Position numbers and translations under genes: made by a program. Under the pieces are notes generated by a model that had not been told where the DNA came from, made no database searches, and worked only from the letters and a program-made list of their open reading frames with translations. Positions 693-23,132 of a stretch of 35,919 bases of DNA are shown here, piece after piece. Origin of the DNA: Moorena bouillonii PNG (GTDB lineage Bacteria > Cyanobacteriota > Cyanobacteriia > Cyanobacteriales > Coleofasciculaceae); contig NZ_MKZS01000001.1 of NCBI RefSeq assembly GCF_001942495.1, positions 5,085,586 to 5,121,504 on the forward strand, in the 5' to 3' direction. How positions within the stretch are numbered: position 1 is the first letter of the stretch; every line of letters begins with the position of its first letter.

Positions 693-794
693 GGAGACGA
701 AACCTTAGAAGAAAGAAGCCTTAATTAATAATTTTTAACCCTTTTTTGCATAGTCTGTCGCCTGTAAAGGCTTCTTTCTTCTTACGGTAACTTC
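693..794 (+). repeat. 102-bp hairpin element, copy A, inside the RT pseudogene
   Basis: Layout: 15-bp left flank beginning GGAGACGAAACC, a 13-bp arm (708-720, GAAGAAAGAAGCC), a 48-bp loop, the exact complementary arm (769-781), and a 13-bp right flank TTACGGTAACTTC. It separates the RT segments FDFL and GWNFRV, which would otherwise be adjacent, so it is an insertion. In the RT frame it gives an immediate stop. The same layout recurs at 1380-1481 and 22980-23132. Boundaries are uncertain by a few bases. Confidence 0.8.
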
Positions 795-1379
795 ATAGGA
801 AGTCAAATCCGTCTGTCGTTTTGGTTAGCTTGGTCTTTTCTTCGCTGATTTCCATCCCTCGTTCATTGAGGAAGTCCTTTATCTTCCCTAATATTTTTTC
901 GGCGTTATCTTTCGGCTTAAGGATTATTACCATGTCGTCGGCATATCTGATGCTTCTAACTCTGGGGTTTATTTCCTCTATTCCGTTAAGTGCAATGTTG
1001 GCGCTTTAGTGGGCTGACCACACCTCCTTGGGGTGTTCCTTGCTCTGGGAATTCCGGATTGATGCCTGCTTTTAGACATCTGAATATCCCCTGTTTCAGA
1101 CCCGCAGGTGCTAGCAATAATTCCATTATGGAGCTATGGGAGATGCGGTCAAAGCACTTCTTAATATCTAGTTCGATTACTCTCTTTTTGATGCCATTGC
1201 AGCTTGAATTCAGATTTTGGAATAGCATTCTTTGTGCGTCTTGGGCACATCTGCCAGTTCTGAATCCGTAACTAAAGGCGCTGAATGTGGCCTCATGGGC
1301 TGGTTCAAGAGCGTATTTTGCGCTTACATTGCCATGCTCTGTCTTGGATTGTTGGTACTTTCAACATTCTCGTACCTCC

Positions 1380-1481
1380 GGAGACGAAACCTTAGAATAG
1401 GGCAGCCTTTATGGTTGGTCGGCTATGGGCAAAAGGGTCAAAACTTTATGATTAAGGCTGCCCTATTCTTGCGGTAACTTC
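1380..1481 (+). repeat. 102-bp hairpin element, copy B, inside the RT pseudogene
   Basis: Same geometry as copy A to the base: 15-bp left flank GGAGACGAAACC..., 13-bp arm GAATAGGGCAGCC (1395-1407), 48-bp loop, complementary arm (1456-1468), 13-bp right flank TTGCGGTAACTTC. Arm sequence differs from copy A on both sides, so pairing is kept. The loop matches copy A only when reverse-complemented. It separates RT segments KKNGQ and the following TRMLKVPT. Confidence 0.8.
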
Positions 1482-2396
1482 TGACCATTCTTCTTGGCTA
1501 TGGGTATTTCCCTTAAGCCTTGGTGCGTCCAGTTTTCCGCACTAGATACTAGTTTTTTAAGTACCTCGAACCTGTCCTTATATGTCAGGGAGGATTTCCC
1601 GTCTATTCCGGCGGTTCTTTTTCCAAGATTTAGCTGTGTCACTTGGCGGATGGCCAGAAGTTGTGCTGAGCGGGATTTCATTATCAGTTTCTGTAGAGAC
1701 CGAGCTTTCCTCAGGTCGCCAGCTTGAACTGCTTTATAAACTCGCTTTTGTAGGCGGAAAAGGTTTCGGCGGAGTTGTTTCCACTTTTGGCTTTTCCATA
1801 GGTCACTATATCTGTTTGACATGTGTCTACCCTTGCTCTTCTCCAGTTTGTTTATCTTGATACCCGTCACCAGTTTCCGGTGACATCTTACCCGACAGTA
1901 GGGATTAAGCAAGGCAGACGCTTACTAAGGTTCGACTACTTCTTAGACCTAAGATGCTGTCGTTTTTACTCGTTCCGTCTGCTAGATTGTTCTGGTGATT
2001 TAGGGCAGTCCAATTTGCCTATCCTCTTCTCGGAGATTACAACTATCAAAAGAAAAACGTTGTGAGAATAAAAGGATGAAGTCTCGTATATACAAGATCA
2101 GATTACGGCTTCTACGTAAGACACTTTTTCAGGACTTTTGCTACTGTTACCCATGTCACCTCCCCGTTAGCGGCAGTGTGGCACATCTGATTTACCTCTG
2201 ATTCCGCCCTGTTGCCAGCGTCACTCTGATGGAGTGCCGTCCATCTCGGTGTGGCCAGATAGGGAGTCACTTATCTCCTAAAGGGGTGGGCTTTCACCAC
2301 CATCCAGCAGATAGTTAGGAATTCGGGTTATTCCCCGCGATTCCCCCTAGTTATACCCTTCCTAATAAGGAAGCTCCTCCTAGGAACGAGCCGCAC

Positions 2397-2788
2397 TCTT
2401 TTTCATAGCGATCAATAGCATAGGGAATCTGTTCTGGGGCAAAGCGTCGGAAGTGACTCAGTTGACCAAACATTGGTCCAACGCTTGCCATCTGGAACAT
2501 CAACCATTCAATCACTTGTATTCTTGCTGCTGTATCCGTTGGCAACAACTTGCCTGTCTTTTCTGCTAAATAAATTAGGATTGCTCCTGACTCGAAAACT
2601 TTTATACCAGTATCCTGGTCAAGGATAGCAGGAATTTTACTATTGGGATTGATTGCTACATATTCGGGAGTAAACTGTTCTCCCTTTGCTATGTTAATTG
2701 TGTGAACGGTGTAGGGAAGTCCTAATTCTTCGAGCATGATAGCAGGTTTACGTCCGTTAGGTGTGGAAAAGGTATATAGGTCAATCAT
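2397..2788 (-). CDS. Glutathione S-transferase (YfcG/Ure2-like), 5' exon, interrupted by a group II intron
   Basis: The N-terminal thioredoxin-fold domain begins [14 protein letters not shown] and carries the substrate-handling stretches NPNSKIPAI and [13 protein letters not shown], typical of the nu-class/YfcG-Ure2 branch that acts on glutathione disulfides and peroxides. The reading is good to YAIDRYEKE and is then lost in intron sequence. The exon ends at 2397 in the middle of a Glu codon. Joining it to window bases 18-1 continues in frame as RVLGD, which resembles the first C-terminal-domain helix of this family. The rest of the gene lies outside the window. It is the last gene of a minus-strand run with thioredoxin, peroxiredoxin and TetR. 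Family assignment is firm; production of full protein depends on intron splicing, which is inferred. Confidence 0.85.
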
Positions 2789-2832
2789 GATTATTTTATA
2801 TCAATTTATCCCTGAAGTTATCTAAGTACTTG

Positions 2833-3000
2833 GTAAGCATTCAGCTATCAGCTGTCAGCCGTCAGCTTATTTTATTCAAAAGCTGTTCCCTTAGCCTGGC
2901 CTAAGGCAAATGGCACCTCAAGTAGCGCATTAGCTGATAGCTGTTCGGGTAGCACCTCAAGTAGCGCATTAGCTGATAGCTGACGGCTGAATGCTTAGGT
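2833..3000. repeat. Dispersed GTAAGCATTCAGC repeat with inverted arms and an internal direct repeat
   Basis: The left arm runs GTAAGCATTCAGC plus TATCAGC-type heptamers and ends near TTATTTTATTCAAAAGCTG. The right arm is its inverse, ending GCTGAATGCTTA. Between them a stretch starting GCACCTCAAGTAGCGCATTA occurs twice, 39 bp apart (from 2913 and 2952). It fills the gap between the GST and thioredoxin genes; no gene is seen. Confidence 0.75.
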
Positions 3001-3082
3001 GCTTGCCAGAATTGACTCCCTAAAGGTAAAAGATAATGGGTAATTAGCTATTACCTTTTACCCGAAAATCGTGATTACCTCC

Positions 3083-3430
3083 TTAAACAGAAATGAGATT
3101 ACTTAGGGCATTAATTTTTTCAACCAGAGTCGCTTTACGCACAAGACCTTCAAACCTTTCAACTACTTTACCTTGCTTGAAAAACAACAGGGAAGGAATT
3201 GCTTCAATGTGATACTGGCTGGCGAGTTGTTCGTAGTCATCAACATTTAATTTGCCTACTTTGACAACTCCATCAAATTCTGTAGCTAATTCAGTGACGA
3301 TTGGATTCATTACCCGACAAGGACCACACCATGGTGCCCAAAAATCTACTATGACTGGAATGGAGCTGTTGAGGACTTCGGTTTCAAAGTTATCGTCATT
3401 TAGGGTTATATATTTTGCTGTTTCTGACAT
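3083..3430 (-). CDS. trxA: Thioredoxin
   Basis: A 115-residue single-domain thioredoxin, the normal length for the family, reducing protein disulfides in the cytoplasm. The active site WCGPC is at residues 34-38 within VDFWAPWCGPCRV, and the cis-proline region reads EAIPSLLFF. An AGGAG ribosome binding site sits about 10 bases before the ATG. It lies 179 bp downstream of the peroxiredoxin-like gene on the same strand and could supply it with electrons. A motif GGAATGATTGTT (3452-3463) in its leader resembles the proposed TetR operator. Function is firm; which of the genome's thioredoxins it is cannot be told here. Confidence 0.95.
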   Translation of the reverse strand: MSETAKYITLNDDNFETEVLNSSIPVIVDFWAPWCGPCRVMNPIVTELATEFDGVVKVGKLNVDDYEQLASQYHIEAIPSLLFFKQGKVVERFEGLVRKATLVEKINALSNLISV

Positions 3431-3451
3431 AGTTCAATTTCTCCTAAACTA

Positions 3452-3464
3452 GGAATGATTGTTG
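3452..3464 (+). promoter_or_regulatory. Possible TetR operator in front of thioredoxin (weakest copy)
   Basis: GGAATGATTGTT matches the GGAACGATTGTT sites before the peroxiredoxin and tetR genes at 11 of 12 positions. The right half of the palindrome is poorer (GTTG in place of GTTC). It may be a real weaker site or chance. Confidence 0.35.
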
Positions 3465-3562
3465 ACTGTTGACTGAAATATTGATGAATTCAGCATTATT
3501 GATTTGCTGTATGAAGACAGGCTGGCACTAAGTAGTTTGATATCAAGAATTGCTGCTGTGTC

Positions 3563-3592
3563 GTAAGCATTCAGCCGTCAGCTAATGCTTAC
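3563..3592. repeat. Small palindrome of the GTAAGCATTCAGC family
   Basis: GTAAGCATT and AATGCTTAC form a perfect 9-bp inverted repeat around a 12-base centre. This is a minimal member of the dispersed repeat also found at 2833, 17960, 21084, 27479 and 32534. It lies just after the peroxiredoxin stop codon and could act as a weak transcript end. Confidence 0.6.
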
Positions 3593-3609
3593 GATTTTTA
3601 TTGAGCTAC

Positions 3610-4266
3610 TTATACGGCTACAGCCAGGGTTTGTAATGCGCTGACAATCTCTTCTGGGTCAAGTCGCTTGGTGTAATCTAGATCAACGAAGGCATGGGTG
3701 ATGGTTCCATCGGAATTAATCACATAGGTGGCGGCAATGGGTAATTCAAAGGTTTCATCGCCGTTGTGGGCAGGTAAATCAATGCCAAAGCTTTGATAAA
3801 CTGGTCGGAGTTCTTCTGGTACGGTGAAGACTAGACCAAACTCTTTGGCAATCTTATTCCCAACATCGCTGAGTACTTCAAAGGTTAGGTGGTTTTTCTC
3901 TGTAGTGGACAGGGAATTATCAGGAGTTTGAGGGGAAATAGCAACTAGGGTTGCACCTAATTTCTGAATTTCTGGTAAGAATTGCTGCAATGCTCGTAAT
4001 TCTAGGTTGCAGTAAGGACACCACTGACCCCGGTAAAAGGAAATGACTACGGCTCCGGTGGCTAGTAGGTCTTGCAATTCTACAGGTTTACCGACGGCAT
4101 TAGGCAGGGTAAAGTTAGGGGCTTTGTCGCCAACATTGAGGCTATTGTCTACAATGCCAGAATTAGCGAGCTCTTCCCCTGCTTTTGCCATGATGGCTTT
4201 GGCTTCTTCTGGTAGCTTAGCGCTAAGCTGGGTATTTAGGTTAATCAAGTCTTGGCTTAAGGTCAT
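3610..4266 (-). CDS. Peroxiredoxin-like protein (AhpC/TSA fold, CxxC active site)
   Basis: A 218-residue thioredoxin-fold peroxidase-like protein. The core motif is FYRGQWCPYCNLELRAL, with Cys83 and Cys86. This CxxC form is typical of the PRX-like subgroup and not of classical 2-Cys peroxiredoxins, which have a PVCT-type site. Supporting features are an N-terminal helical segment (about residues 1-40), the strand GDKAPNFTLPNA, and a C-terminal half (YVINSDGTITHAFVD) usual for AhpC/TSA proteins. A strong AGGAGG lies 6 bases before the ATG. The leader carries a palindrome shared with the upstream tetR promoter, so it is probably the main TetR target. Substrate (H2O2 or organic peroxides) is not determinable. 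Confidence 0.88.
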   Translation of the reverse strand: MTLSQDLINLNTQLSAKLPEEAKAIMAKAGEELANSGIVDNSLNVGDKAPNFTLPNAVGKPVELQDLLATGAVVISFYRGQWCPYCNLELRALQQFLPEIQKLGATLVAISPQTPDNSLSTTEKNHLTFEVLSDVGNKIAKEFGLVFTVPEELRPVYQSFGIDLPAHNGDETFELPIAATYVINSDGTITHAFVDLDYTKRLDPEEIVSALQTLAVAV

Positions 4267-4290
4267 GATTTCCTCCTAGTTAGATTATAT

Positions 4291-4307
4291 TTGAACAATC
4301 GTTCCAA
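4291..4307. promoter_or_regulatory. Candidate TetR operator before the peroxiredoxin gene
   Basis: The palindrome TTGAACAATCGTTCCAA (inverse: TTGGAACGATTGTTCAA) has GAAC/GTTC half-sites and lies 24 bases upstream of the start codon, just before the ribosome binding site. The same core recurs before tetR at 4974-4992. Sharing between regulator and neighbour is the usual pattern for local TetR control. Confidence 0.6.
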
Positions 4308-4357
4308 TTAAGAGCAAAAAAAATTACTCTGTCAATTTACTCTGTCAATTTACTCTG

Positions 4358-4957
4358 TCAATCGATAACGGAAAGTATGACCTTGACAATAGCTCTTAGG
4401 GTTTCTGGGTCTGGGTTGACTTTGGAGATAACCCGCAACCCTTGTATACTACTGGTGAAATATTGGGCTAATGCCTGAAGGTCATGGTTGGTTGTGATTT
4501 CCCCTTGCTCCCTTGCTGTGGATAAGGCTTTTTTAAAAGCGTTTTCCACTGAGCGCAAATTAGCAGCAATCCGGGATTTAGTCTGTGGATCGTGGGGACA
4601 CAGTTCAACAGCGGTGTTGGTGAGCAAGCAGCCTCGATGGTCTTTATCGTCTACAGCCCCTTCGATGAGGTTGTAGAAAAAGTCGATAATGGCTTGCTTT
4701 GAGGCTGTGGGGGCTTCTAGGGATGCGATCGCATTTTTAACACAAGTATCATTGTAATGAGCGATCGCAGCGAGGAATAGGGAACGTTTGTCACCAAAGG
4801 TGTCGTATAGACTGCCTCGGTTAATCCCCATGGTTTTGACCAAGTCCTGCATTGAGGTTCCTTCATAGCCATAAAGCCAAAAGGTTTCCATGGCTTTTTC
4901 TAGAACATCTTCTGGGTCAAAGGTTTTGTGCCTTGCCATCACCGTTGCTGAACTCAT
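4358..4957 (-). CDS. TetR-family transcriptional regulator
   Basis: The N-terminal helix-turn-helix reads ALEKAMETFW-like: VLEKAMETFWLYGYEGTS, then MQDLVKTMGINRGSLYDTFG, the standard TetR DNA-binding signature close to the AcuR/ComR type. The C-terminal half is an all-helical ligand domain containing DHRGCLLTNTAVEL. The open frame continues upstream to 5125, but that part runs into the divergent gene and has no family similarity. Starts at 4957 (MSSATVMARHK) or 4939 (MARHK) fit better. It is divergent from the carboxypeptidase gene and upstream of peroxiredoxin on the same strand, with similar operators before both. An inducer such as an electrophile or peroxide product is only a guess. Confidence 0.9.
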   Translation of the reverse strand: MSSATVMARHKTFDPEDVLEKAMETFWLYGYEGTSMQDLVKTMGINRGSLYDTFGDKRSLFLAAIAHYNDTCVKNAIASLEAPTASKQAIIDFFYNLIEGAVDDKDHRGCLLTNTAVELCPHDPQTKSRIAANLRSVENAFKKALSTAREQGEITTNHDLQALAQYFTSSIQGLRVISKVNPDPETLRAIVKVILSVID

Positions 4958-4973
4958 AGATATACTATAACAA

Positions 4974-4992
4974 TTCTGGAACGATTGGTCAA
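4974..4992. promoter_or_regulatory. Candidate TetR autoregulatory operator
   Basis: TTCTGGAACGATTGGTCAA shares the core GGAACGATTG with the site at 4291-4307 and has an imperfect palindrome (GAAC/GGTC). It lies 17 bases upstream of the 4957 start, where a repressor would block its own promoter. Confidence 0.55.
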
Positions 4993-5091
4993 GTAATCCA
5001 GTTGCTTCCCTGACACTGCTGGGATTTTGAGTAACGATAAGTATGTAATAAATAAATGTAATAATTTGGATGTCAGTGCAGGAGTGGACTA

Positions 5092-5949
5092 TTGAATAAC
5101 CCAGGTCTCCCGGGCGAACCACCAAACCTTTCTGAGGTAACAGAGGTACCAGTAGATGATATTCCCGAGGCAGTAAGGGATAGACAGGATATCAAACCCC
5201 GGTCTCGTTGGCAGGTTACCTTACTCATTATTGGACTATTGGCAATAGGAGGAATCGCCTTTAGCCTGATTCCAATGGAACCAACTCCTGAAGCTCAGTC
5301 CAAGTCGGGTGAAGCAACATCGAGTCAAAGTCAGACAGAAGCTAGTTCACAGAGTCCACAAGCTAGTCTAAACAATACGGGGAATGATGCTGATAACATT
5401 CTGGGACACTTACCCTACTCTGAAGTGCTAAGCTCACAACTGGAACCAATTACCCGTGATGGCCGGATTAAATTGGAGGCTGCAGCAGCTCGGAAATACA
5501 AAGCAATGGCAGCCGCAGCAAGAAGACAGGGGATAATCCTAGTGCCAATTTCCGGCTTCCGTTCGGTGGACCAGCAAAAGTACCTGTTTTTTCAAGTCAA
5601 GGAACAGCGAGGACAGGTGGCTAGTAAACGGGCTGAAGTCAGTGCTCCCCCTGGCTACAGTGAGCATCACACTGGTTATGCGATTGATATTGGGGATGCC
5701 ATGGCACCAGCTACCAACGTGAATCCTGAGTTTGAGAATACGGCAGCCTTTAAGTGGTTGGAAAAGAATGCGGCTTTCTACAGCTTTGAGTTGTCTTTTC
5801 CTAAAGACAATCCCCAAGGAATTAGTTATGAGCCTTGGCACTGGAGATTTGTGGGAGATACCAAGAGCTTGGAAACGTTCTACAAAGGTAAGAAACCTAC
5901 TCCTGCTCCTTCTCCATCGGAAACACCAAACTTTGAGGATGAAGTATGA
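5092..5949 (+). CDS. Membrane-anchored D-alanyl-D-alanine carboxypeptidase (M15/VanY type)
   Basis: Residues 1-40 are a Pro/Glu-rich cytoplasmic tail and 41-60 a single membrane helix. Residues 61-100 are a Ser/Thr/Gln linker, followed by the M15 peptidase domain. Zinc and catalytic residues are visible: GFRSVDQQ (155-162), SEHHTGYAID (His192, Asp199) and EPWHWR (Glu247, His250). The enzyme would trim the terminal D-Ala of peptidoglycan stem peptides on the periplasmic side. The start is a TTG at 5092, chosen because AGGAG precedes it by about 8 bases and the frame opens there. A link to vancomycin resistance is not implied; such genes are common housekeeping trimmers in cyanobacteria. Confidence 0.9.
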   Translation: MNNPGLPGEPPNLSEVTEVPVDDIPEAVRDRQDIKPRSRWQVTLLIIGLLAIGGIAFSLIPMEPTPEAQSKSGEATSSQSQTEASSQSPQASLNNTGNDADNILGHLPYSEVLSSQLEPITRDGRIKLEAAAARKYKAMAAAARRQGIILVPISGFRSVDQQKYLFFQVKEQRGQVASKRAEVSAPPGYSEHHTGYAIDIGDAMAPATNVNPEFENTAAFKWLEKNAAFYSFELSFPKDNPQGISYEPWHWRFVGDTKSLETFYKGKKPTPAPSPSETPNFEDEV

Positions 5950-5961
5950 AGGTTGTCTGTC

Positions 5962-6032
5962 AGAATGTAGAATTAAGAATTAAGAATTAAGAATTAAGAA
6001 TTAAGAATTAAGAATTAAGAATTCTACATTCT
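5962..6032. repeat. AATTAAG heptamer array closed by a 13-bp inverted repeat
   Basis: About seven copies of the heptamer AATTAAG lie between AGAATGTAGAATT (5962-5974) and its exact complement AATTCTACATTCT (6020-6032). The array can therefore fold into a long hairpin just after the carboxypeptidase stop codon. It could serve as a transcript end, but no U-tract follows. Confidence 0.75.
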
Positions 6033-6413
6033 TAATTCAAAAAAGTTGTTCGCCTTTGGCGTTCGTTGTAGGCTAGGTTAGCTGGTTGAATGGGATCGGG
6101 TGGCATTTTTGCCAAGGTTTAAATATGAAGTATGAAAGGCTTGGATACTTGGATCCACAGTAAAAATTTAAATTAATAATTAAAAAATTATCTCATCATG
6201 TTTATAGAAAGATGAGATAAAAAAAATGTTCATAAATAGATAGTAGGTAATAGTCTTAATATTTATCGCTTTCCTGTTCCCTACTCCCTATACCCAGATC
6301 CGCTGTTCCCTGTTCCCAGATCCGCTGTTCCCTGTTCCCTATTCCCTACTATTTACAATTGTTCAAACAAACATGATATAACTAACAATGAACGAACAAG
6401 TAACCAAGAACAA
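6033..6413. other. Intergenic stretch with a hairpin and TTCCCTG-type heptamers
   Basis: No gene is seen. TTATCTCATC (6188-6197) pairs with GATGAGATAA (6211-6220); a T-run follows on the minus strand only, so it would terminate minus-strand reading, where no gene lies. Bases 6270-6350 are CTGTTCCC/CCTATTCC-like heptamers. Confidence 0.6.
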
Positions 6414-7082: not shown

Positions 7083-7094
7083 CTATAATTTTAT

Positions 7095-7165
7095 AGCAAA
7101 GGGAACAGGGAACAGCGGATCTGGGAACAGGGAGCAGGGAGTCGGGAGTCGGGAGTCGGGAAAGA
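7095..7165. repeat. Heptamer repeats (GGGAACA / GGGAGTC)
   Basis: Imperfect 7-bp tandem units GGGAACA, GGGAGCA and GGGAGTC follow the M41-like gene. They are the inverse of the TTCCCTG arrays seen at 6270 and 23650. No coding content. Confidence 0.7.
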
Positions 7166-7471
7166 TTGGGAGTTGTGGAATGTATTGGAGGTGTGGGGAG
7201 AGGGAATAGTTATTATAGTTATTAAGGTTTTTCAAAGATACTTAGCACAACGGATCCGAGGAGATGGTGATGTCCTAAGCATGACAAACCTGCTACCTGG
7301 CCAAATTCTTCCCGTTGCTGTCGGCTATAGAAACGAATCTGGTTAGGGGAAATTGGTAAAGACTTTTTTCGCTTTATAACAGTATAGTCTACTAGGTAAT
7401 AATGTCCTTTGGGGCGCAAAACCCGGCTAACTTCTGAGAAAACTTGTTGAGGATTGAGGTAGTTTGACACT

Positions 7472-7492
7472 CCCCGCCCTAGAAGGACGGGG
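7472..7492. other. Right-end hairpin of the TnpB element (possible guide-RNA scaffold end)
   Basis: CCCCGCCCT and AGGACGGGG pair with one mismatch around AGA, just before the right end. In IS200/IS605 elements this hairpin is bound by TnpA. The transcript covering the tnpB 3' end and this region is the known source of the TnpB guide RNA (reRNA), so the guide would read into the host sequence beyond 7464. Confidence 0.65.
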
Positions 7493-8690
7493 ATTCTTTG
7501 CTCAACGACCCGTCTTGCTCAACCAGACCGGAGTCAGGAAGAGTAGAGGACAGATCTCCCAAAGCGTTCAGATCATGGATCCTAGTTCCGGTGTGCCCCA
7601 CCGTACTTAAGGCTCTCTTAAGAATGTTGATGGCTGCATTGTGGTCTCTGTCTAATTGACAACCACATTTGCAGGTATGAGTTCGAGTTGACAAAGATTT
7701 TGTGACAACTTCACCACACTGGGAACAATTCTGGCTGGTATAAGCAGGATTAACTGCAACCGTTATCCGACCAAACTTAGTACCAAAATGTTCCAACCAT
7801 TTTCTGAATTGATACCAACCTGCATCATTAATAGACTTGGCGAGACAGTGATTTTTCACCAAATTCCTAACTCTTAGATCTTCGTAGGCGACCAGGTCGT
7901 TAGACCAGATTACGCAACGTGCCAGTCTTTTGGCATGTTCTTCACGTTGTCTACTTATTCTAAGATGCTGCCTACCTAGTCTATCAATGGCTTTCTTTCG
8001 GTTAGCAGAGCCTTTCTTTCTTCGGGATACTCGGCGTTGATAAAACTTTAAGCGCTTTTCACCTGTTCGGTAAAATCGTGGGTTAGGTTCAGTTTTTCCC
8101 ACGGAATCAGTGTAGAAATCCTTTAGTCCAACATCTAAACCGAGGGCTGTTCCGGTTGGCTCCAGCTCTTCCGTTATGTCAACTGAAACACAAAACTGAA
8201 CATAATACCCATCAGCCCGCCGGACTATGCGAACCCGCTTAATCTGCTTCTTATCAAATCTCCACAAGTCCCAAGTACCCTTGAGCTTGAGTTTCCCGAT
8301 CCCTTTCTTGTCACTGAAGGTTATTGACTTTTTGTCAGGGGACAACTTCCAACCGGACTGTTTGTACTCAACTGAGCGGCAATGCTTTTGAAACTTAGGA
8401 AAACCCTTTTTTCCAGGTACTTTTTTCTTGCAGTTGTCGTAGAAACGGGCGATGGATGACCAGGCTCTCTCAGCACTGGACTGACGAGCTGTGGAGTTCA
8501 AATCATTGGCAAAGGGGAACTGTTTGGCTAAGACCTTGCAGTATTTACTGAGGTCATACTTTCCAATCCCCTTGTTATCAATCCAGAGCCTGATACAGCT
8601 GTTACGGATGAATTTTCCCGTCCGAATAGCTTCATCAATGGCTGAGTATTGGTGTTTTTTGCCGTAGGCTTTGAACTCTAGGACAATCAT
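7479..8690 (-). CDS. tnpB: TnpB, RNA-guided nuclease of an IS200/IS605 element
   Basis: A 403-residue TnpB of usual length. All RuvC-type residues are present: GLDVGLKDF (Asp186), VAYEDLRV (Glu270) and LDRDHNAA (Asp349). The zinc finger reads SQCGEVV...CKCGC. The N-terminal helical and beta-barrel part spans about residues 1-175. Known members cut DNA next to a short motif under guidance of an RNA from the element's right end and help the element persist after excision. No stop or frameshift is seen, so it looks active. It belongs to a different branch from the TnpB at 34557-35825. Confidence 0.95.
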   Translation of the reverse strand: MIVLEFKAYGKKHQYSAIDEAIRTGKFIRNSCIRLWIDNKGIGKYDLSKYCKVLAKQFPFANDLNSTARQSSAERAWSSIARFYDNCKKKVPGKKGFPKFQKHCRSVEYKQSGWKLSPDKKSITFSDKKGIGKLKLKGTWDLWRFDKKQIKRVRIVRRADGYYVQFCVSVDITEELEPTGTALGLDVGLKDFYTDSVGKTEPNPRFYRTGEKRLKFYQRRVSRRKKGSANRKKAIDRLGRQHLRISRQREEHAKRLARCVIWSNDLVAYEDLRVRNLVKNHCLAKSINDAGWYQFRKWLEHFGTKFGRITVAVNPAYTSQNCSQCGEVVTKSLSTRTHTCKCGCQLDRDHNAAINILKRALSTVGHTGTRIHDLNALGDLSSTLPDSGLVEQDGSLSKESPSF

Positions 8691-16584: not shown

Positions 16585-16920
16585 GTTGGCTAATCTCCAT
16601 CAATAAAAAAGTAATATTTGACTGGTGCAATTCACCAAGGTAGCTTCAAGGCTAGGTAAATTACTACTACACAACAGCATTGCTACTGTTCAGCATAAAG
16701 AACTTCTAAACCTTTAGCTGACAAAACTATACTACCATAGTCTCGTTAATTTTTTGCCTTCACAAAATAATCTTTGTGCTACATCGATGGCATTACCAGC
16801 TGAGTTCAAATTCAGCAAATTATTGAACAATACGTCAGGGATATACTTACAGCTATTGAACTGAATCCTTACGATGTTTTCTGGGCACCACCGCCATATA
16901 AATACTTACTATTAGGTGCT
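16585..16920. other. Intergenic region upstream of the EF-hand gene
   Basis: No gene with a start codon, repeat or clear promoter is seen. A plus-strand frame from about 16800, running on over the 3' end of the next gene, encodes a plausible-looking peptide (DILTAIELNPYDVFWAPPPY) but begins right after a stop codon with no start. It is not called. Confidence 0.5.
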
Positions 16921-17685
16921 TTATTTCGTTTCTATAGTTATCATTCGGTGCAATTCAGAATAATACTTAATCGTTTGTTCATTCCATTCCATCATCTTCC
17001 ATTCAACTGGCTGCTGGTTCAATCCATTGAGGAAAGAAGGGAACACTATCGGCTCCTCAAATGTAGTTGAGTATAAGAAGTGGAAATCATCATGATACAT
17101 CCTCTGAGTAACTTTGTTTTCACGATCAACCAAACAGAAAGCCCTTTTAGCTCCTAAGTCATCAATATATTTACCAAAAGCTGCTAATAGTAATGGCATG
17201 GCTCGCCTGTAGTGTCTGAGCATCACGCTGTATGTATTGATATCGACTGCCGGAATCTTGTCTTGAAAAACGTAATGTTCACCATTAGGTCTTTGCCCCA
17301 TTTCAAAAGGGAACCTACTCGACTTGGTTCTATCGTTAATTCGTGATGTTAGTACTATTTCATTGTCTTTGATGACAAAAAAATAGGTTCCTACTAAATG
17401 ATATTCATTGTCGATTCGATTACTAAATCCATCATATCCTGCTTTTTTTAAGTGCATTTTATGCACTTCGCGAACCTGTTCAGTCCAATTTTTAGTCTGG
17501 TCATTAACACCCATGACATAAACCAGGTATCCATCTTTTTCGAGATATAAATATGGAGCCAAAAGTTCTTGCTCTGAATACCATAAATCACCGGAATTTT
17601 TCGTAGAAAGGCTATGGTCAGCTTTCGACATTGAATTGATCATCAGTGAAACTAAAATCTTCAGTGTTGGATCACTCCATGGCAA
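16921..17685 (-). CDS. Conserved hypothetical protein, possibly GNAT/N-acyl amino acid synthase-like
   Basis: A 254-residue soluble protein, function not recognised with certainty. The middle part (YHLVGTYFFVIKDNEIVLTS-RINDRTKSSRFPFEMGQRP...) has a strand-loop pattern with Arg and Glu like the acyl-donor region of LuxI/FeeM-type acyltransferases. A later helix-strand-helix with LLAAFGKYIDDLGAKRAFCL, VDREN and QRMYHDDFHF resembles the end of a GNAT fold. If correct it would join a fatty acyl group to an amino acid or similar. Starts at Met1, Met15 or Met19 are all possible, and no strong ribosome site decides between them. The P450 gene next door is on the same strand but 318 bp away. Confidence 0.6.
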   Translation of the reverse strand: MPWSDPTLKILVSLMINSMSKADHSLSTKNSGDLWYSEQELLAPYLYLEKDGYLVYVMGVNDQTKNWTEQVREVHKMHLKKAGYDGFSNRIDNEYHLVGTYFFVIKDNEIVLTSRINDRTKSSRFPFEMGQRPNGEHYVFQDKIPAVDINTYSVMLRHYRRAMPLLLAAFGKYIDDLGAKRAFCLVDRENKVTQRMYHDDFHFLYSTTFEEPIVFPSFLNGLNQQPVEWKMMEWNEQTIKYYSELHRMITIETK

Positions 17686-18003
17686 TGGTTAGGCAAGACT
17701 AGCCATTTTTAAGCACACAAACTACATTGTATTACCACATCAAGTCTAAATAACCTGAGATTTAAGCTTAACTTAAGAAAGTGATGATATAGCACTAAGC
17801 ATTAAGGTGTTTGACATTGATACAAGCAGCAAAAGGTGCGACCCGTAGCGAATTTAATTCTTAATGGATCAAGCGCACCTTTGCCTCTTGCATGCATGCC
17901 TCTTGCCTTTCCCGTAGCGCTATATCAGCTTTTGGCCTGTGGCTACGCTACGGGAATAGTTTTTGAATAAAATAAGCTGATGGCTGACGGCTGAATGCTT
18001 ACC
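17686..18003. repeat. Intergenic region with GTAAGCATTCAGC-family repeat
   Basis: Bases 17960-18003 are an inverted copy of the dispersed repeat (TTTTGAATAAAATAAGCTGA through GCTGAATGCTTACC). At 17910-17955 CCCGTAGCGCTATATCAG faces GGCTACGCTACGGG. No gene is seen. Confidence 0.65.
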
Positions 18004-19356
18004 TTAAGAGCCTACTTTACGGCTAAACTTAACCTTAAGTCCATCCCGGGGATGGGGAGTTGGAATCACCACCATTTCTAAATCTTGACCTGGCACTAAT
18101 TTCCATTCATAATCCCGGAGCAATTGAGCCGCGAAAATCCTCATTTCTAATTTGGCAAACTCCCTGCCTAAACATTCCCGTAAACCACCACCAAAGGGGA
18201 TATATCCAAAGGTTTTTTGTTTATCTTCTGTCCGATCTCGACCAAACCGATCTGGGTCAAAGCGTTGATGATCTCGATAAACTTCCTGATCTTTGTGGGT
18301 TTGGGTAATTTGGCACAGTACAGTCCAACCTTGAGGAATCAAGTAACCATTAAATTCAAAAGACTGAATAACCTTCCGAAAAAGACCACTAACAGGAGGA
18401 ATTATGCGCAGCACTTCTTTGAGCACTTGCTCTAGATACGTCATCTGCTTGAGATGTTCCATAGTTAGGGGTTCTGAACCAGAAAACTGCTGTTGTTCAG
18501 CACGGAGATGGGCAAGAACATCTGGATGCTGCGCTGTCAACAGACAAAAAGATGCGATCGCAGAGGTTAAGGTTTCGTGGCCTGCCCACAACAACAGAAG
18601 CACTTGGTCTTTGATTTCATCCAAACTCAAGGACTTCCCCTGGTCATCCTCGGCTTTTAACAATAATCCTAAGGCGTCCTCTCCGGGATTTTTCTGTTGC
18701 TGTCGCTGTTGGACAATGGTTTCGATATAGGTCAGCAATCCTTGACGAGCACGCAAGGCTTTACCAAACCTTGTCCAAGGTAGAGAGATCGGGATACTGA
18801 ACACTCCCTCAGAAAAGTTATTAAATAGTTGAGCCAGAGGGGTTTCGGAACCGCCATCAGTTCCCATCAGCAAGGTACTAGCGATCTCAAAGGTATAGTC
18901 CTGCAGTTGAGGATACCAGGTTAAGGTTCCTATCTCTTCCCATTTCTTGAGATAATTGCTAGTAATGTTGGCCATGGTGGGAATATAACTAGCTAATGCT
19001 CTCGGTTGAAACGCCTGGGACATTAACTTACGGCGCTTCTGGTGGAAAACTCCCGTTTGGTTGGCCAGTGAGGCGGCTCCAAGTAAGATTTGCGTGCTTT
19101 TGGGCCAGATAGAAGCAACATACTGATTTTCATTCGTAAACAGAAATTGATTCGCTTCTGCAGTATTCATCGTCACCGCAGGACTACCAAAAATGTGGGT
19201 TTTGTAGATGGGCCCATACTTTTCTGACCGCTTTTTGTGGAAATTTCGATCCGTTAAAAAGCTGATGGTCTCACCGATAATCGGTAAATAGACATTACCA
19301 GGGGGCAATGGAAGCGATTGCATATCTTGAGTAGTGGTTTCCATGGAAATAAGCAA
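18004..19356 (-). CDS. Cytochrome P450, CYP120-like
   Basis: A 450-residue soluble P450. The proline-rich start LPLPPGNVYLPIIGET is followed by the I-helix oxygen motif LLWAGHETLTS (AGHET, 258-262). The ExxR is KEVLRI (Glu314, Arg317), then FDPDRF, and the heme loop is IPFGGGLRECLGREFAK (Cys395). The layout and FGGGLRECLG match the CYP120 family, whose Synechocystis member hydroxylates retinoic acid and other apocarotenoids. Start at 19356 or at the METTTQ codon (19344); both are close to the family length. No ferredoxin or reductase gene is adjacent, so electrons come from elsewhere. The exact substrate is an inference. Confidence 0.93.
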   Translation of the reverse strand: MLISMETTTQDMQSLPLPPGNVYLPIIGETISFLTDRNFHKKRSEKYGPIYKTHIFGSPAVTMNTAEANQFLFTNENQYVASIWPKSTQILLGAASLANQTGVFHQKRRKLMSQAFQPRALASYIPTMANITSNYLKKWEEIGTLTWYPQLQDYTFEIASTLLMGTDGGSETPLAQLFNNFSEGVFSIPISLPWTRFGKALRARQGLLTYIETIVQQRQQQKNPGEDALGLLLKAEDDQGKSLSLDEIKDQVLLLLWAGHETLTSAIASFCLLTAQHPDVLAHLRAEQQQFSGSEPLTMEHLKQMTYLEQVLKEVLRIIPPVSGLFRKVIQSFEFNGYLIPQGWTVLCQITQTHKDQEVYRDHQRFDPDRFGRDRTEDKQKTFGYIPFGGGLRECLGREFAKLEMRIFAAQLLRDYEWKLVPGQDLEMVVIPTPHPRDGLKVKFSRKVGS

Positions 19357-19424
19357 GCTGCAGGGTCAAGACCTATTATCTCGTGCCTGATCCAGGGTAA
19401 ACCCATCTTATTTTGAAATGCCTA

Positions 19425-19515
19425 CTGGAAGGGAACAGGGAACAGGGAACAGGGAGTAGGGAATATGGCATCAAAATTATCTCAATTCCTACACGGATTG
19501 CTATATAACTCTTGT
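19425..19515. repeat. Composite repeat: GGGAACA heptamers joined to a unique tail
   Basis: GGGAACA units (19431-19460) lead into ATCAAAATTATCTCAATTCC followed by TACACGGATTGCTAT. The same tail, next to the same heptamer type, recurs inverted at 23604-23703. The pair therefore behaves as one dispersed module. Confidence 0.7.
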
Positions 19516-19588
19516 GCTAGATCTAGGGCTGTCTTGATGTCACCACTCCTGACGCACAACTCCTCAATCATGGAGTTATACACCAGAA

Positions 19589-19811
19589 TTATTCATCAAG
19601 GTGCTGCCTAATCTCTTCGATGGAGATACCTGCACCAGGTTTGACATTAGCGGAACGTTCCATGGCGAAAATTCATCAGTTCCAGATTCTGACGAGTTAG
19701 TTTAATTTCCTCGTCAAAATCTTCTTCTTCACCAATCTCAAACACGTGAGCAAGGACTGGCTTACCTAATAAAATGTTGGGATTGGAATCAATGTATTCT
19801 CTCCAATTCAT
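19589..19811 (-). pseudogene. Small antitoxin-like remnant in two overlapping frames
   Basis: A 54-codon frame starts at 19811 with MNWREYIDSNPNILLGKPVL, the opening usual for DUF433 antitoxins. It then departs into an acidic stretch (FEIGEEEDFDEE) and stops at 19647. A second frame (19663-19589, MERSANVKPGAGISIEEIRQ, 24 codons) overlaps it. These may be parts of one or two degraded antitoxin genes; no toxin partner is seen. A small intact protein cannot be excluded. Confidence 0.45.
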
Positions 19812-20128
19812 GATGATTATTTATTGAATTATATTGATAGTTAACTATTTTAAAGCATTTATCCATTCGGCGATGTACTTTAGTAAAGGGAGCAGTAAGT
19901 CCGGATTTTGGAGATAGAGTGTGAGTTTTTTATGATAACTGATTAATATCCAATTTAACTCAAAAAAAGCTTAGATGTTCTATCAGATAAACCGTTTTTT
20001 AAAACTTAACTATTGTCTGCTATATAAAAAGTATCCAATAAAAAATACTATAAATAGTATACATAATTTAGTTCATAAATGGCTAAAAAAAATAGTTGTA
20101 AATAAATGTAAATAATTTTAATTAACCC
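19812..20128. other. AT-rich intergenic region, no gene seen
   Basis: Low-GC sequence with many A/T runs and no repeat of the families seen elsewhere. It leads into the promoter at 20129. Confidence 0.5.
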
Positions 20129-20157
20129 TTGCATTTTTTGGAATAGTTATGTATAGT
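20129..20157 (+). promoter_or_regulatory. Near-consensus sigma-70 promoter before the mini-ORF module
   Basis: TTGCAT (20129-20134) and TATAGT (20152-20157) are separated by exactly 17 bases, each one or two changes from the -35 and -10 consensus. The start would fall near 20164, 13 bases before the duplicated hairpin module. It is the clearest promoter in the window, and no long gene follows. Confidence 0.65.
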
Positions 20158-20176
20158 ATAGAAGGTGACGACTGAA

Positions 20177-20399
20177 ACTAATAGCTGCGCTGGTAATAAC
20201 TGTTAACCACGACCAGCGCAGCTTTCCTCCCTCCTAAAAAGGAGTTATTTCCATGATGCCAAAAATATCACGATCATCAATCCTGGACCGATACTAATAG
20301 CCGCGCTGACAAAAACTGTTAACCACAACCAGCGCGGCTTTCCTCCCTCCTAAAAAGGAGTTACTTCCATGATGCCAAAAATATCACGATCATCAATCC
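20177..20399 (+). repeat. Tandem duplicated module: hairpin, sequestered Shine-Dalgarno, mini-ORF (116-bp period)
   Basis: Unit 1 is 20177-20292 and unit 2 is 20293-20399. Each has a GC-rich hairpin: GCTGCGCTGG/CCAGCGCAGC at 20184-20222, and GCCGCGCTG/CAGCGCGGC at 20300-20338. The stems differ by a matched T-A to C-G change, which supports real pairing. A 5-bp hairpin CTCCT-AAAA-AGGAG follows, burying the Shine-Dalgarno, and then ATGATGCC with identical first ten codons. It is either a duplicated leader RNA or a small-peptide locus. Confidence 0.75.
20253..20297 (+). CDS. Mini-ORF 1, 14 codons
   Basis: ATG at 20253, 8 bases after AAGGAG (20239-20244). It reads MMPKISRSSI then LDRY and a stop that lies inside the start of unit 2. 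Translation is plausible from the ribosome site and from conservation of the first ten codons between the two units, but the units are so similar that this is weak evidence of selection. Confidence 0.35.
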   Translation: MMPKISRSSILDRY

Positions 20400-20410
20400 C
20401 GGTTGGGTGA
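20369..20410 (+). CDS. Mini-ORF 2, 13 codons
   Basis: ATG at 20369, again 8 bases after AAGGAG (20355-20360). It reads MMPKISRSSI, then PVG and stop. The peptide tail differs from mini-ORF 1 from the eleventh codon, exactly where the duplicated unit ends. Confidence 0.35.
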   Translation: MMPKISRSSIPVG

Positions 20411-20445
20411 ATCTCATTTTTGCGGTTTGACCCGGTGGGTGCCAT

Positions 20446-20536
20446 GGGCATCAGGGGTGGAACAGGCATCTTGCCTGTGATCAATATTTTCCAGCAGACT
20501 GTCGGGCATCAGGGGTGGAACAGGCATCTTGCCTGT
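20446..20536 (+). repeat. Two copies of a 33-bp ACAGGCATCTTGCCTGT repeat
   Basis: GGGCATCAGGGGTGGA followed by ACAGGCATCTTGCCTGT occurs at 20446-20478 and 20504-20536. The second part is a palindrome (ACAGGCA / TGCCTGT). A further GGGCAGGATGCCC palindrome follows near 20547. Confidence 0.8.
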
Positions 20537-20644
20537 TTCAATTTCCGGGCAGGATGCCCACTCTACTCCTATTCATTCAAAGACTGACGCAACGCCAGCT
20601 AATGGGCTACAGATGGTGCTACTTGAGGTGCCAAAAGCCAACGG

Positions 20645-20742
20645 CTGACTTATGACTTATGACTTATGACTTATGACTTATGACTTATGACTTATGACTT
20701 CTGACTTCTGACTTCTGACTGCTGACTGCTGACTGCTGAATA
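20645..20742. repeat. Heptamer array drifting from GACTTAT to GACTTCT to GACTGCT
   Basis: About thirteen 7-bp units in three blocks (GACTTAT, then GACTTCT, then GACTGCT), each block differing by one or two bases from the one before. This shows stepwise change with local copying of the new variant. Confidence 0.8.
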
Positions 20743-20996
20743 ATTACATTTTACGAGAGTAAAAAAACAGGAATATATTTCGACGAATAAAAAAAGAAAA
20801 AAGCTAAGGTTAGCATACAACATTGACAATATCCTCTACTATAAGAGTAAGATAGAGCTTAACTGCTTCCTGGAACAACACTGTCAAGTGCCCAGGTAAC
20901 AAATAGATTCAGTTACTCATAGAATCAAGGGAACTAGTGTAAGGATAAGCCAAGTCAATGGTCACTCATGACTTAGGCTGATTTAAGATTAGGGTG

Positions 20997-21028
20997 TTAT
21001 CTACGCCAAAATTTTATCTACGCTAAAA
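20997..21028 (+). promoter_or_regulatory. Direct repeat TTATCTACGCYAAAA upstream of amt
   Basis: TTATCTACGCCAAAA (20997-21011) and TTATCTACGCTAAAA (21014-21028) are 17 bp apart, about 150 bases before the amt start. They could bind a dimeric regulator or be a small duplication. No convincing GTA-N8-TAC NtcA site was found in the region by eye. Confidence 0.35.
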
Positions 21029-21083
21029 GAGTTTTCACTAGTAGCCTAAGGCCAAAAAAAATTAATTAATTCAGGGGTCTACG

Positions 21084-21132
21084 CTGAAAGCTGAAAGCTG
21101 ACGGCTGAAAGCTGACGGCTGAATGCTTACAA
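21084..21132. repeat. CTGAAAG/CTGACGG heptamers ending in GCTGAATGCTTAC
   Basis: A member of the GTAAGCATTCAGC family in inverted orientation, about 40 bases upstream of the amt start codon. It would therefore lie in or beside the amt leader. Confidence 0.7.
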
Positions 21133-21172
21133 GTATTGATTTTTATTCTAAGCACTAAACCTTTGATTACTA

Positions 21173-22720
21173 ATGTCTAAACAAAACCGTAAAAGGTCAA
21201 GGTGCACCAGCGGTTGGACGCTGCAAAGTTGGAAAATTTGCTTGCCCTTAATCGCAATAATCATGCTGTTGTGTGCCGAGGTAGCAGTAGCCCAGAATCC
21301 ACCTTTTCAGACTACCCTTGCATCTCTCCAAATTGCCGTGGATACTATCTGGGTGATATTCACTGGTTGTTTAGTATTTTTCATGAACGCGGGCTTTGGG
21401 ATGTTGGAAGTTGGTCTTTGCCGCCAAAAGAACGCCGCCAACATTTTGACTAAAAACCTAATTGTGTTTGCCCTGTCTACAGCCGCTTACTGGGCAGTTG
21501 GGTTTGCTGTGATGTTTGGTGATGGAAACCCTGTTTTAGGTTTCAATGGCTTGTTCCTTTCGGGATTAGATAATAGTCCAGCCATAGGAGAAGCCTACAA
21601 CGGCGTCTTCTATTCACTAAAAGATATTGGTATACCCCTCAACGCCAAATTCTTTTTTCAACTGGTTTTTGCTGGAACTGCTGCCACTATTGTGTCTGGA
21701 GCAGTGGCGGAGCGCATCAAATTTTCTGCGTTTTGTCTGTTCAGCGTTCTACTTGTGGGCATCATTTACCCAATCACGGGTCACTGGATTTGGGGAGGAG
21801 GCTGGCTAGGAGGAGGCTGGCTACAAGGGCTAAAAGTTTGGGACTTTGCTGGTTCCACCGTAGTTCACTCCGTAGGCGGTTGCTGTGCCTTAGTAGGTGC
21901 TTACCTTCTCGGACCACGCAAGGGCAAATATATAGATGGCGTTTGCTATGGGCTGCCCGGACACAATCTCAGCCTGGCGATTCTGGGTTGCTTGATTTTA
22001 TGGCTGGGCTGGTTTGGTTTTAATCCCGGCTCAACCATTTTTAATCCCGGAACGACAAATTTAGATCCCAAGGCCATTAGCCATATTGTCCTCACGACCA
22101 ATACAGCAGCTTGTGCAGGGGGTATTGCCGCAGCTCTAACTACCTGGTTTGACCCAAGGGATCCTGACAGTAAGCCTGACCCCACTATGATTATTAACGG
22201 AGTACTGTCGGGTTTGGTAGCCATTACCGCATCCTGTCGATTCGTTACCATTGGTAACGCTATTGCTATAGGTCTGCTTGCAGGAATAATTGTGGTCTTT
22301 TCAGTGGACTTCTGGGACAGGATGAAAATTGATGATCCAGTAGGTGCTATTTCTGTCCATCTTGTCGGTGGAGTCTGGGGAACACTGGCTTTAGGTCTTT
22401 TCAGTGAAGGACCTGGTGATTTGTATGGTATTGGTAACGGTCCAGTAGCCGGACTATTCTGTGGTGGCGGGATAGATAGTATCCCGCAGCTTTCTATTCA
22501 ACTACTTGGCATTGTTGCAGTAGGTCTGTCAACGGTTGTCATGAGCTGGCTGGCTTGGTTATTTGTTAAAAGCATACTTTCCTCAAGTCTGAGAGTTACA
22601 GAAAAAGCAGAAATTGAAGGTCTAGATTTCCACGAACACCGTATGACTGCCTACAGTGGCTTTTTGTTTAAGGGAGATGTCAAGCAATTAGCCATGAGGG
22701 ATCGGCAAAGACATAATTAG
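21173..22720 (+). CDS. amt: Ammonium transporter (Amt family)
   Basis: A 515-residue membrane protein. Residues 1-40 look like a cleavable signal ending AEVAVA-Q, followed by about eleven membrane helices as usual for Amt. Family landmarks are FMNAGFGMLEVGLCRQKNAA, the first pore histidine in GSTVVHSVGG, WLGWFGFNPGST, and the second pore histidine in DDPVGAISVHLVGGVWG. It conducts ammonium/ammonia at the plasma membrane. The cytoplasmic tail (about residues 480-515) ends RDRQRHN. No glnB/glnK gene is adjacent. In this family NtcA control is common, but no clear NtcA box is seen here. Confidence 0.95.
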   Translation: MSKQNRKRSRCTSGWTLQSWKICLPLIAIIMLLCAEVAVAQNPPFQTTLASLQIAVDTIWVIFTGCLVFFMNAGFGMLEVGLCRQKNAANILTKNLIVFALSTAAYWAVGFAVMFGDGNPVLGFNGLFLSGLDNSPAIGEAYNGVFYSLKDIGIPLNAKFFFQLVFAGTAATIVSGAVAERIKFSAFCLFSVLLVGIIYPITGHWIWGGGWLGGGWLQGLKVWDFAGSTVVHSVGGCCALVGAYLLGPRKGKYIDGVCYGLPGHNLSLAILGCLILWLGWFGFNPGSTIFNPGTTNLDPKAISHIVLTTNTAACAGGIAAALTTWFDPRDPDSKPDPTMIINGVLSGLVAITASCRFVTIGNAIAIGLLAGIIVVFSVDFWDRMKIDDPVGAISVHLVGGVWGTLALGLFSEGPGDLYGIGNGPVAGLFCGGGIDSIPQLSIQLLGIVAVGLSTVVMSWLAWLFVKSILSSSLRVTEKAEIEGLDFHEHRMTAYSGFLFKGDVKQLAMRDRQRHN

Positions 22721-22959
22721 GGTTTGCTGAAAAAGTCTTTTGGTATGGGATTGAGTCAGCGAGTGTGGAGTCAGGAGTTAGGAGAAATGGGAATTATATC
22801 TGACGGGGTGACAAACAGCCTTAAAAGCCTTACTGGGTGTGGGGTGTGGGGTGAGGGCGAACGGGGAAGATCAGGAGCTGGCTACGTTGCTAGGGACGGT
22901 TGAATCAGGTATATGACCGATTGTTATTGCACCGGCTCACTCCAAATTCCCTGTCAGCC
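22721..22959. other. Intergenic region after amt
   Basis: GTGTGGGGTGTGGGGTGAGG repeats occur near 22835; otherwise no gene or clear terminator is seen. Confidence 0.5.
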
Positions 22960-22979
22960 ATGCTTTGCGCGAGTGGTTT

Positions 22980-23132
22980 GAAGTTACCGTAAGATAGTGG
23001 AGCCTTGTCTTGATGCAGTCGCTCATGGGGGAAACCCCCAAGACCGCGCTGCATCGCTATTCAAAAGTATTTAACCCTTTTCTGCATAACCTGCTAACTA
23101 TAAAGGCTCCACAATAAACAGGTTTCGTCTCC
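22980..23132 (-). repeat. Hairpin element, copy C, carrying a nested P element
   Basis: On the minus strand: 15-bp flank GGAGACGAAACCTGT, arm TTATTGTGGAGCC, loop, arm GGCTCCACTATC, 13-bp flank TTACGGTAACTTC. The loop is 100 bp, of which 52 bp (23007-23058) is a P element, leaving the same 48 bp as copies A and B. Eight inner stem pairs are perfect and the outer part is partly decayed. Loop orientation relative to the flanks agrees with copy B and is opposite to copy A. Confidence 0.8.
23007..23058. repeat. 52-bp palindromic element P, copy 2, nested in element C
   Basis: GTCTTGATGC...GGGGGAAACCCCC...GCATCGCT, identical or nearly so to the copy at 32674-32725. Removing it restores the 48-bp loop length of the other hairpin elements, so its ends are fixed to within a base or two. 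Confidence 0.85.

What the first reader, a model, noticed from the sequence alone, without database searches (positions are those of the whole stretch)
693..23132. Family of 102-bp hairpin elements with matched stem changes and an inverting loop
Copies A (693-794) and B (1380-1481) have the same plan to the base: 15-bp flank, 13-bp arm, 48-bp loop, 13-bp arm, 13-bp flank. Copy C (22980-23132) fits once a nested 52-bp element is removed. The flanks are conserved (GGAGACGAAACC ... ACGGTAACTTC). Arms differ between copies (GAAGAAAGAAGCC, GAATAGGGCAGCC, TTATTGTGGAGCC) yet A and B keep full pairing. The loop aligns between A and B, and between A and C, only if it is turned round relative to the flanks. 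Kept pairing plus loop inversion suggests a selected structure and either recombination across the arms or processing of a folded single strand. I know of no described element with this plan.
Basis: partly seen in the sequence, partly recalled or inferred. Interest (0 to 1): 0.85.

Follow-up and report, generated by a model that had tools for sequence, protein, structure and literature searches.

The report
Mobile hairpin family with flipping loops
A marine cyanobacterium carries dozens of copies of a roughly 105-base hairpin element whose two stem arms tend to stay matched and whose loop sits either way round, most simply because DNA copying switches between the arms; it is a new family, but of a broadly known kind.

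Summary
Relaxed flank searching gave 175 distinct copies: 81 from the window's genome, 94 from loci of three named Moorena MAGs. The loop lies in both orientations relative to fixed flanks (103 forward, 72 reversed, none ambiguous). One pair agrees at 75 of 76 inner positions after inversion, with identical outer ends. In the 55 distinct 102-bp elements, arm pairs are 94% Watson-Crick with varied sequence, 24-43% when slid, and almost never G-T. Empty sites show a ~105-bp insertion, most often with CC on both sides. Recognised hosts include group II intron, tnpB and other transposase genes; A and B interrupt one group II intron reverse transcriptase gene.

Best reading: a non-autonomous, REPIN/MITE-like mobile hairpin of Moorena. 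Arm matching and loop inversion come from template switching between the arms, a described mechanism. The mobilising enzyme was not found.

Unexpected: at the same site in hosts whose flanks differ by 11-28%, the element is often identical (12 of 29 pairs), so it spreads or is kept separately from its flanks. No site compared showed the same inner sequence both ways round. Verdict: new variant of a known kind.

The parts
693..794 (+). copy A (forward loop): flank 693-707, arm 708-720, loop 721-768, arm 769-781, flank 782-794; element proper probably runs to 797 (ATA)
1380..1481 (+). copy B (reversed loop): flank 1380-1394, arm 1395-1407, loop 1408-1455, arm 1456-1468, flank 1469-1481; element proper probably runs to 1484 (TGA), CC on both sides
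22980..23132 (-). copy C (reversed loop by likeness to L074), with a nested repeat; arms imperfect
23007..23058 (.). ~52-bp nested repeat (GGGGG/CCCCC hairpin type) inside copy C, limits approximate; the same sequence stands before the right arm in L159, L162 and L172
97..1912 (-). group II intron-encoded protein gene (RVT_N, RVT_1, maturase and HNH pieces) interrupted by A and B; by my reading of the open frames also broken elsewhere
19..98 (-). group II intron match (Rfam RF00029), 3' end of the host intron
1955..2066 (+). empty homologue of a third insertion site, upstream of the intron-encoded protein (filled in L043, L044, L147)
7868..7976 (+). empty homologue of a tnpB insertion site (filled in L016, L018, L020, L092, L122, L126, L127), inside tnpB 7479-8690

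Best explanation
A small non-autonomous mobile hairpin family of Moorena. The unit is about 105 bp (GGAGACGAAACC...GGTAACTTC plus TAA/TGA/AAA), inserted most often at CC with CC left on both sides (shown by empty sites). It is moved by an enzyme not identified here (inferred). Because each copy is an inverted repeat with a spacer, replication can jump from one arm to the other. A jump that copies one arm onto the other gives matched multi-base arm changes and sometimes runs past the arm into the flank. A jump across the spacer inverts the loop (inferred; the footprints are shown). Ectopic exchange between copies and between paralogous host genes spreads the variants further (inferred).
For: Both orientations in quantity: own 56 F/25 R, other Moorena 47 F/47 R, 0 ambiguous of 175. 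Recurrent inversion: 27 changes on the inner-sequence tree of 121 rows, at least 5 forced by starred branches; near-identical inverted pairs in several arm subfamilies (L130/L030 75 of 76; L048/L030 72 of 76; L054/L040 72 of 76; L131/L011 71 of 76). Arms: 35 distinct perfect arm sequences, 88 of 132 distinct elements perfect; WC 94% against 24-43% when slid, G-T 2 of 715 cells. L147 against L009 differs at exactly one paired position. Overwriting past the arm: the left flank CCTTAG reads as the reverse complement of the same copy's own right flank in L087, L089 (GTAAG) and L135 (GCAAG), matching the right-end variant in 3 of 3; the reverse case in L187 (one further GCAAG match, in L190, is not an element). 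Insertion: 115 of 165 copies have an empty homologue, 59 with a net 5-base difference of the joined flank, 20 with 3, 36 other. Mechanism in print: template switching between inverted-repeat arms homogenises arms and inverts spacers (PMC8604942, abstract and introduction; PMC8794818, passages).
Against: No site compared shows the same inner sequence in both orientations: the sites with mixed orientation (two groups, a further pair) carry different inner sequences, and orientation is clustered on the tree (27 changes against 39.5 for shuffled labels, 0 of 500 as low), so flipping is rare or tied to movement. Among 31 close pairs with arm changes, 26 changes were paired but 24 arm sites changed on one side only, many as short 'word' swaps (GTGGAGCC/GGGTCGCC) that I did not trace to a local template. 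The overwritten copies L089 and L135 still have mismatched inner arms, so the copied tract would be partial. The tree rests on 57 columns and 66 of 111 inner branches are open. In PMC8794818 changes of a stem pair joined with loop inversion were extremely rare in rRNA. No mobilising enzyme was found.
Confidence: 0.6

Rival explanations
1. REPIN-like transposition through single-stranded hairpins by a Y1 (HUH) transposase: pairing is selected because the enzyme needs a DNA hairpin, and inversion is a by-product of how the folded strand is rejoined.
For: Plan like REPINs: invariant ends, variable paired spacer, compensatory changes. A RAYT is present (L193, 191 bits against a cut-off of 80) among 18 Y1 matches. 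Lack of G-T pairs fits selection on DNA pairing too. Target folding slightly above controls (p 0.006 for energy, 0.056 for stem length, 51 sites).
Against: Of 12 Y1 loci examined (of 18) none has the element ends on both sides of the gene; L187 has one element copy nearby. The two ends are only imperfect inverted repeats. 44 of 132 distinct elements have imperfect arms.
Confidence: 0.2
2. A site-specific invertase flips the loop at the arms, as in phase variation.
For: 17 resolvase-domain matches in the genome; inversion bounded by inverted arms.
Against: The perfect arms alone have 35 different sequences, so no fixed recognition site; orientation is nearly constant within a site; a number of copies lie inside transposase and intron genes where switching has no evident use.
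Confidence: 0.06
3. The element is removed at the RNA level (intron-like or ribosome bypass), so the pairing is RNA-functional and host genes stay active.
For: Several hosts are open on both sides of the insertion: group II IEP L147 313+204 codons, L010 263+200, L009 262+197; tnpB L016 257+161, L092 290+135.
Against: Almost no G-U pairs; the inserted length (most often 107 or 105) does not keep a frame; only 17 of 175 copies have 80 or more open codons on both sides; the window's own IEP also seems broken outside the elements (my reading); recent insertion explains open hosts.
Confidence: 0.05
4. Assembly artefact: 100-bp repeats collapsed or chimeric contigs give identical elements with different flanks and apparent inversions.
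For: The NODE contig names of the MAGs suggest short-read assembly, and the elements are repeats.
Against: Many distinct variants coexist in one genome; the window's genome is nearly one contig (8.26 of 8.32 Mb); independent genomes agree at the same sites. The clearest inverted pair does rest partly on a MAG contig (L130).
Confidence: 0.04

Closest known systems
REPINs (REP doublets forming hairpins; Bertels and Rainey 2011, PMC3116915)
   Same: invariant ends, variable spacer kept paired by compensatory changes, dispersed and apparently mobile
   Different: ends here are not two copies of one REP in inverted order; no RAYT flanked by them was found in the loci examined; a number of copies lie inside mobile genes; the spacer occurs in both orientations
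Bacterial MITEs
   Same: short, non-coding, inverted-repeat, dispersed, empty sites with a short flanking duplication
   Different: only the outer ends are well conserved; the inner arms vary while mostly staying paired; no autonomous parent with the same ends was found in this genome
CGTC-tagged REPs (Di Nocera 2013, PMC3733652)
   Same: a CGTC lies in the unpaired part of one end (reverse complement of GGAGACG); no transposase associated; heterogeneous stems
   Different: those units have 8-9 bp stems and 4-5 base loops; here the arm is 13-16 bp and the loop 48 in A and B
Spacer inversion and arm homogenisation by template switching (PMC8604942; PMC8794818)
   Same: both footprints: matched arm changes and inverted loops
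   Different: described there in yeast genes and in RNA genes, not across a multicopy mobile family with both orientations common

Membership tests
REPIN | two conserved ends in inverted orientation (same REP twice) | tested here: not met
   left end GGAGACGAAACC against reversed right end GG(TTA)GAAGTTACC: only partial similarity, by eye
REPIN | variable spacer kept paired by compensatory changes | tested here: met
   94% WC at 13 arm pairs with several pair types, 24-43% when slid
REPIN | cognate RAYT gene flanked by the element ends | tested here: inconclusive
   a RAYT exists but none of 12 Y1 loci examined, of 18, has the ends on both sides
MITE | short non-coding mobile unit with empty sites | tested here: met
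   115 of 165 copies have an empty homologue; 59 differ by 5 bases, 20 by 3, 36 otherwise
MITE | terminal inverted repeats shared with an autonomous parent | tested here: not met
   no long element seen in 29 regions around single or oddly spaced ends; some show one end only, e.g. L160, L161, L171, L176, L177, so a parent with one diverged end is not excluded
IS110/bridge-RNA element | IS110-family transposase in the genome | tested here: not met
   PF02371: 0 matches in the genome
IS607-type non-autonomous element | insertion at a GG/CC dinucleotide core (recalled) with ends shared with an IS607 element | tested here: inconclusive
   CC on both sides is common but the homology boundaries of the resolvase loci compared do not resemble the element ends; true IS ends were not determined
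Guide-RNA targeted element | inner sequence complementary or identical to the target | tested here: not met
   longest exact match test over 54 site clusters (37 F, 17 R), no excess
Rfam RNA family | match to a curated RNA family | tested here: not met
   only Intron_gpII at 19-98 reached its gathering score in the window

The most novel reading that the evidence does not exclude
Elements are copied precisely into the same site of diverged paralogous mobile genes (homing-like), by a short single-stranded or RNA-templated copying step; the same step re-copies one arm from the other and flips the loop, so that arm matching, inversion and site-locked identity are three faces of one replication mode for a 105-bp hairpin.
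Probability: 0.15. Interest if true: 0.8.

Novelty: new variant of a known kind. Interest (0 to 1): 0.5.

Why it matters
Paired changes in a stem are usually read as proof of a selected structure. This family offers dozens of natural replicates, within one genome and between species, in which matched stem changes, palindrome extension and loop inversion occur together with almost no wobble pairs. It would let one measure how far template switching alone produces 'covariation', and separate it from selection. The finding that elements at one site can stay identical while the host gene around them diverges is a separate puzzle about how miniature elements spread among the genes of larger ones.

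Tried and rejected
Autonomous parent: left and right ends were located genome-wide by exact patterns and 29 regions around unpaired or oddly spaced ends fetched; none shows a long element, though some show one end only (L160, L161, L171, L176, L177). Transposase-based search for a parent: Y1 (12 loci of 18 matches) and resolvase (12 loci of 17 matches) neighbourhoods show no matching pair of ends except where the element itself is inserted; homology boundaries of the resolvase loci do not resemble the ends; IS110 absent. Guide-like targeting: no excess match or complementarity between inner sequence and target. Hairpin targets: weak only. Known RNA: none for the element. Spread outside Moorena: exact flank pattern in 4 of 291 genomes of the order, this one included, all of this genus, and in none of 16 genomes of other genera of the family; 0 in viral contigs; B with flanks has no plasmid match. 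Literature: seven searches of the held library on cyanobacterial repeats, MITEs, REPINs, template switching and Moorea/Moorena showed no description of this family in the rows listed; some searches listed only 12 of 108, 12 of 166 and 10 of 440 papers. One search concerned group II introns. Only listings were seen except for four papers: PMC8794818 (passages), PMC8604942 (abstract, introduction), PMC3116915 (passages), PMC3733652 (abstract, passages). Work on cyanobacterial small dispersed repeats is recalled and was not read. The origin of the short 'word' swaps in arms and loop was not resolved; no formal local-template search was run for them. The relaxed pattern also caught false copies (for example near window 13702, in an ATPase gene); the stricter set was used afterwards, while searches used the set.
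Full report
What is there. The genome holding the window is 8.3 Mb; the named genomes found to carry the element are Moorena MAGs and the unnamed ones are all of the window's genus, so the host is inferred to be a Moorena. The strict flank pattern occurs 47 times in this genome and 0 times read backwards. A relaxed flank pattern over the loci held at that point gave 175 distinct copies, 81 from this genome and 94 from loci of three Moorena MAGs (loci L001-L008 were left out as duplicates, and elements longer than the pattern allows, such as C, are not counted). Among 291 genomes of the order, this one included, the exact pattern occurs in 4.

Loop orientation. Each of the 175 loops fits one orientation: 103 forward and 72 reversed, none ambiguous at the margin set. 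A tree of the inner sequence turned to one orientation needs 27 changes of orientation, fewer than shuffled labels (39.5, 0 of 500 as low), with at least 5 forced by well-supported branches; it rests on 57 columns and 66 of 111 inner branches are open. So orientation is inherited but has changed several times. The clearest pair is L130 (reversed) and L030 (forward): 75 of 76 inner positions agree after inversion, with 26 of 26 outer positions identical, against 54 matches without inversion. Similar pairs (71-72 of 76) exist in several arm subfamilies. Within one insertion site orientation is nearly constant: two groups and one further pair are mixed, and these carry different inner sequences. 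Inversion is recurrent in the family but was not caught at a site.

Arms. Of 132 distinct elements 88 have perfect arms, in 35 different arm sequences. For the 55 distinct elements of exactly 102 bp, 94% of arm cells are Watson-Crick pairs, against 24-43% when the partner is slid by 1 to 3 bases, and G-T pairs are 2 of 715 cells. Among elements with 1-3 mismatches only 3 of 59 mismatches are G-T. A structure selected in RNA should pass through and tolerate wobble pairs; copying one arm from the other should not; selection on a DNA hairpin would also disfavour them. In L087, L089 and L135 the left flank beyond the arm reads as the reverse complement of the right flank, each time matching that copy's own right-end variant, and L187 shows the opposite direction; in L089 and L135 the inner part of the arms is still mismatched, so the tract would be partial. 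Against a purely intra-element process, 24 arm sites among 31 close pairs changed on one side only, beside 26 paired changes, many as short word swaps seen repeatedly at different sites.

Mobility. Flanks are mostly CC before and TAACC, TGACC or AAACC after. Of 165 copies with enough flank, 115 have a homologous empty site among the held sequences; 59 of these lack 5 bases of the joined flank, which means a 105-bp insertion with a 2-bp duplication, 20 lack 3, which means 105 bp without duplication, and 36 differ otherwise. The window holds two such empty sites, in tnpB (7868-7976) and upstream of the protein gene of its own group II intron (1955-2066). Pfam or Rfam support hosts in the window (group II intron and its protein; tnpB as an empty site), and resolvase matches overlap or adjoin the L011-L013 places; other transposase hosts are my reading of the frames. 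Many copies lie outside recognisable genes: only 17 of 175 have 80 or more open codons on both sides. A and B both interrupt the protein gene of the window's group II intron, whose frame also seems broken elsewhere.

The unexpected pattern. For 37 pairs of copies at the same site with homologous flanks on both sides, the element is identical in 16. In the 29 pairs with flank divergence of 11-28% it is identical in 12, and in 7 of the 37 the element differs more than the flanks. The A site (three copies here identical, one in another Moorena differing by one compensated pair), the B site and two further sites show it base by base; flank differences begin roughly 8 to 40 bases from the ends on most sides, but L032 and L036 are identical downstream over the whole stretch shown. 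A block of two elements and the 85 bases between them is identical in three IS607-like copies that differ by roughly 20% outside, which points to exchange of a tract in that case. The pairs are not independent. Shared descent without exchange cannot give 0 of 102 changes beside 20% flank divergence unless the element is constrained, and elements at different sites differ freely. Short-tract conversion among paralogous mobile genes, or repeated insertion at one site, are the candidates; I found no guide-like match between element and target.

How it most likely works. Shown: dispersed family, insertion with empty sites, both loop orientations, concerted arms, flank overwriting in a few copies. 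Inferred: movement by an enzyme acting in trans, and template switching between the arms as the source of both arm matching and loop inversion. Template switching at inverted repeats is in print as a cause of arm homogenisation and spacer inversion (PMC8604942, abstract and introduction) and of compensatory changes and loop inversions in RNA hairpins (PMC8794818, passages), where the two together were extremely rare.

Comparison with known kinds. The nearest are REPINs, which share invariant ends and a compensated spacer (PMC3116915, passages), but the ends here are not an inverted pair of one REP and no RAYT with these ends was found in the 12 of 18 Y1 loci examined, although a RAYT is present. 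It meets the loose definition of a MITE except for a parent element. CGTC-tagged REPs share a terminal CGTC and the lack of an associated transposase but have much shorter stems and loops (PMC3733652, passages). I file it as a new variant of miniature hairpin elements.

Noticed in passing
L011, L012, L013 (IS607-like tnpA copies): Two elements in opposite orientation 85 bp apart, identical as one block in three copies whose outer flanks differ by roughly 20%.
   Followed up: partly
window 22980-23132; L159, L162, L172: A second ~52-bp hairpin repeat (GGGGGTTTCCCCC type) is nested just inside the right arm in several elements, and conversely elements often sit inside that repeat at its C run.
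   Followed up: partly
L009, L010, L147 (group II IEP); L016, L092, L126 (tnpB): Host reading frames are open on both sides of the insertion for most of the protein, although the element itself interrupts them.
   Followed up: partly
arms and loops, e.g. the group of 18 copies at GGGGGTTCCCCC-type sites (L059 and others): Short blocks of bases swap between a few fixed alternatives (TTAGACA/TGATTAC, TCAA/GAGC, TTGATTAA/AGCCGATTTT) at the same position in different copies; origin unknown.
   Followed up: no
right ends of L018, L020, L084, L134: The right terminus TAACC is replaced by GTTCCC in some copies at otherwise matching sites, which makes the two ends more alike.
   Followed up: no
window 32628-32915: Open frame of a tandem heptad (SAISYQL), with a copy of the 52-bp repeat at about 32672-32726.
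   Followed up: no
window 34557-35825 and 7479-8690: Two tnpB-like genes (Cas12f1-like TNB and OrfB_IS605 domains).
   Followed up: no
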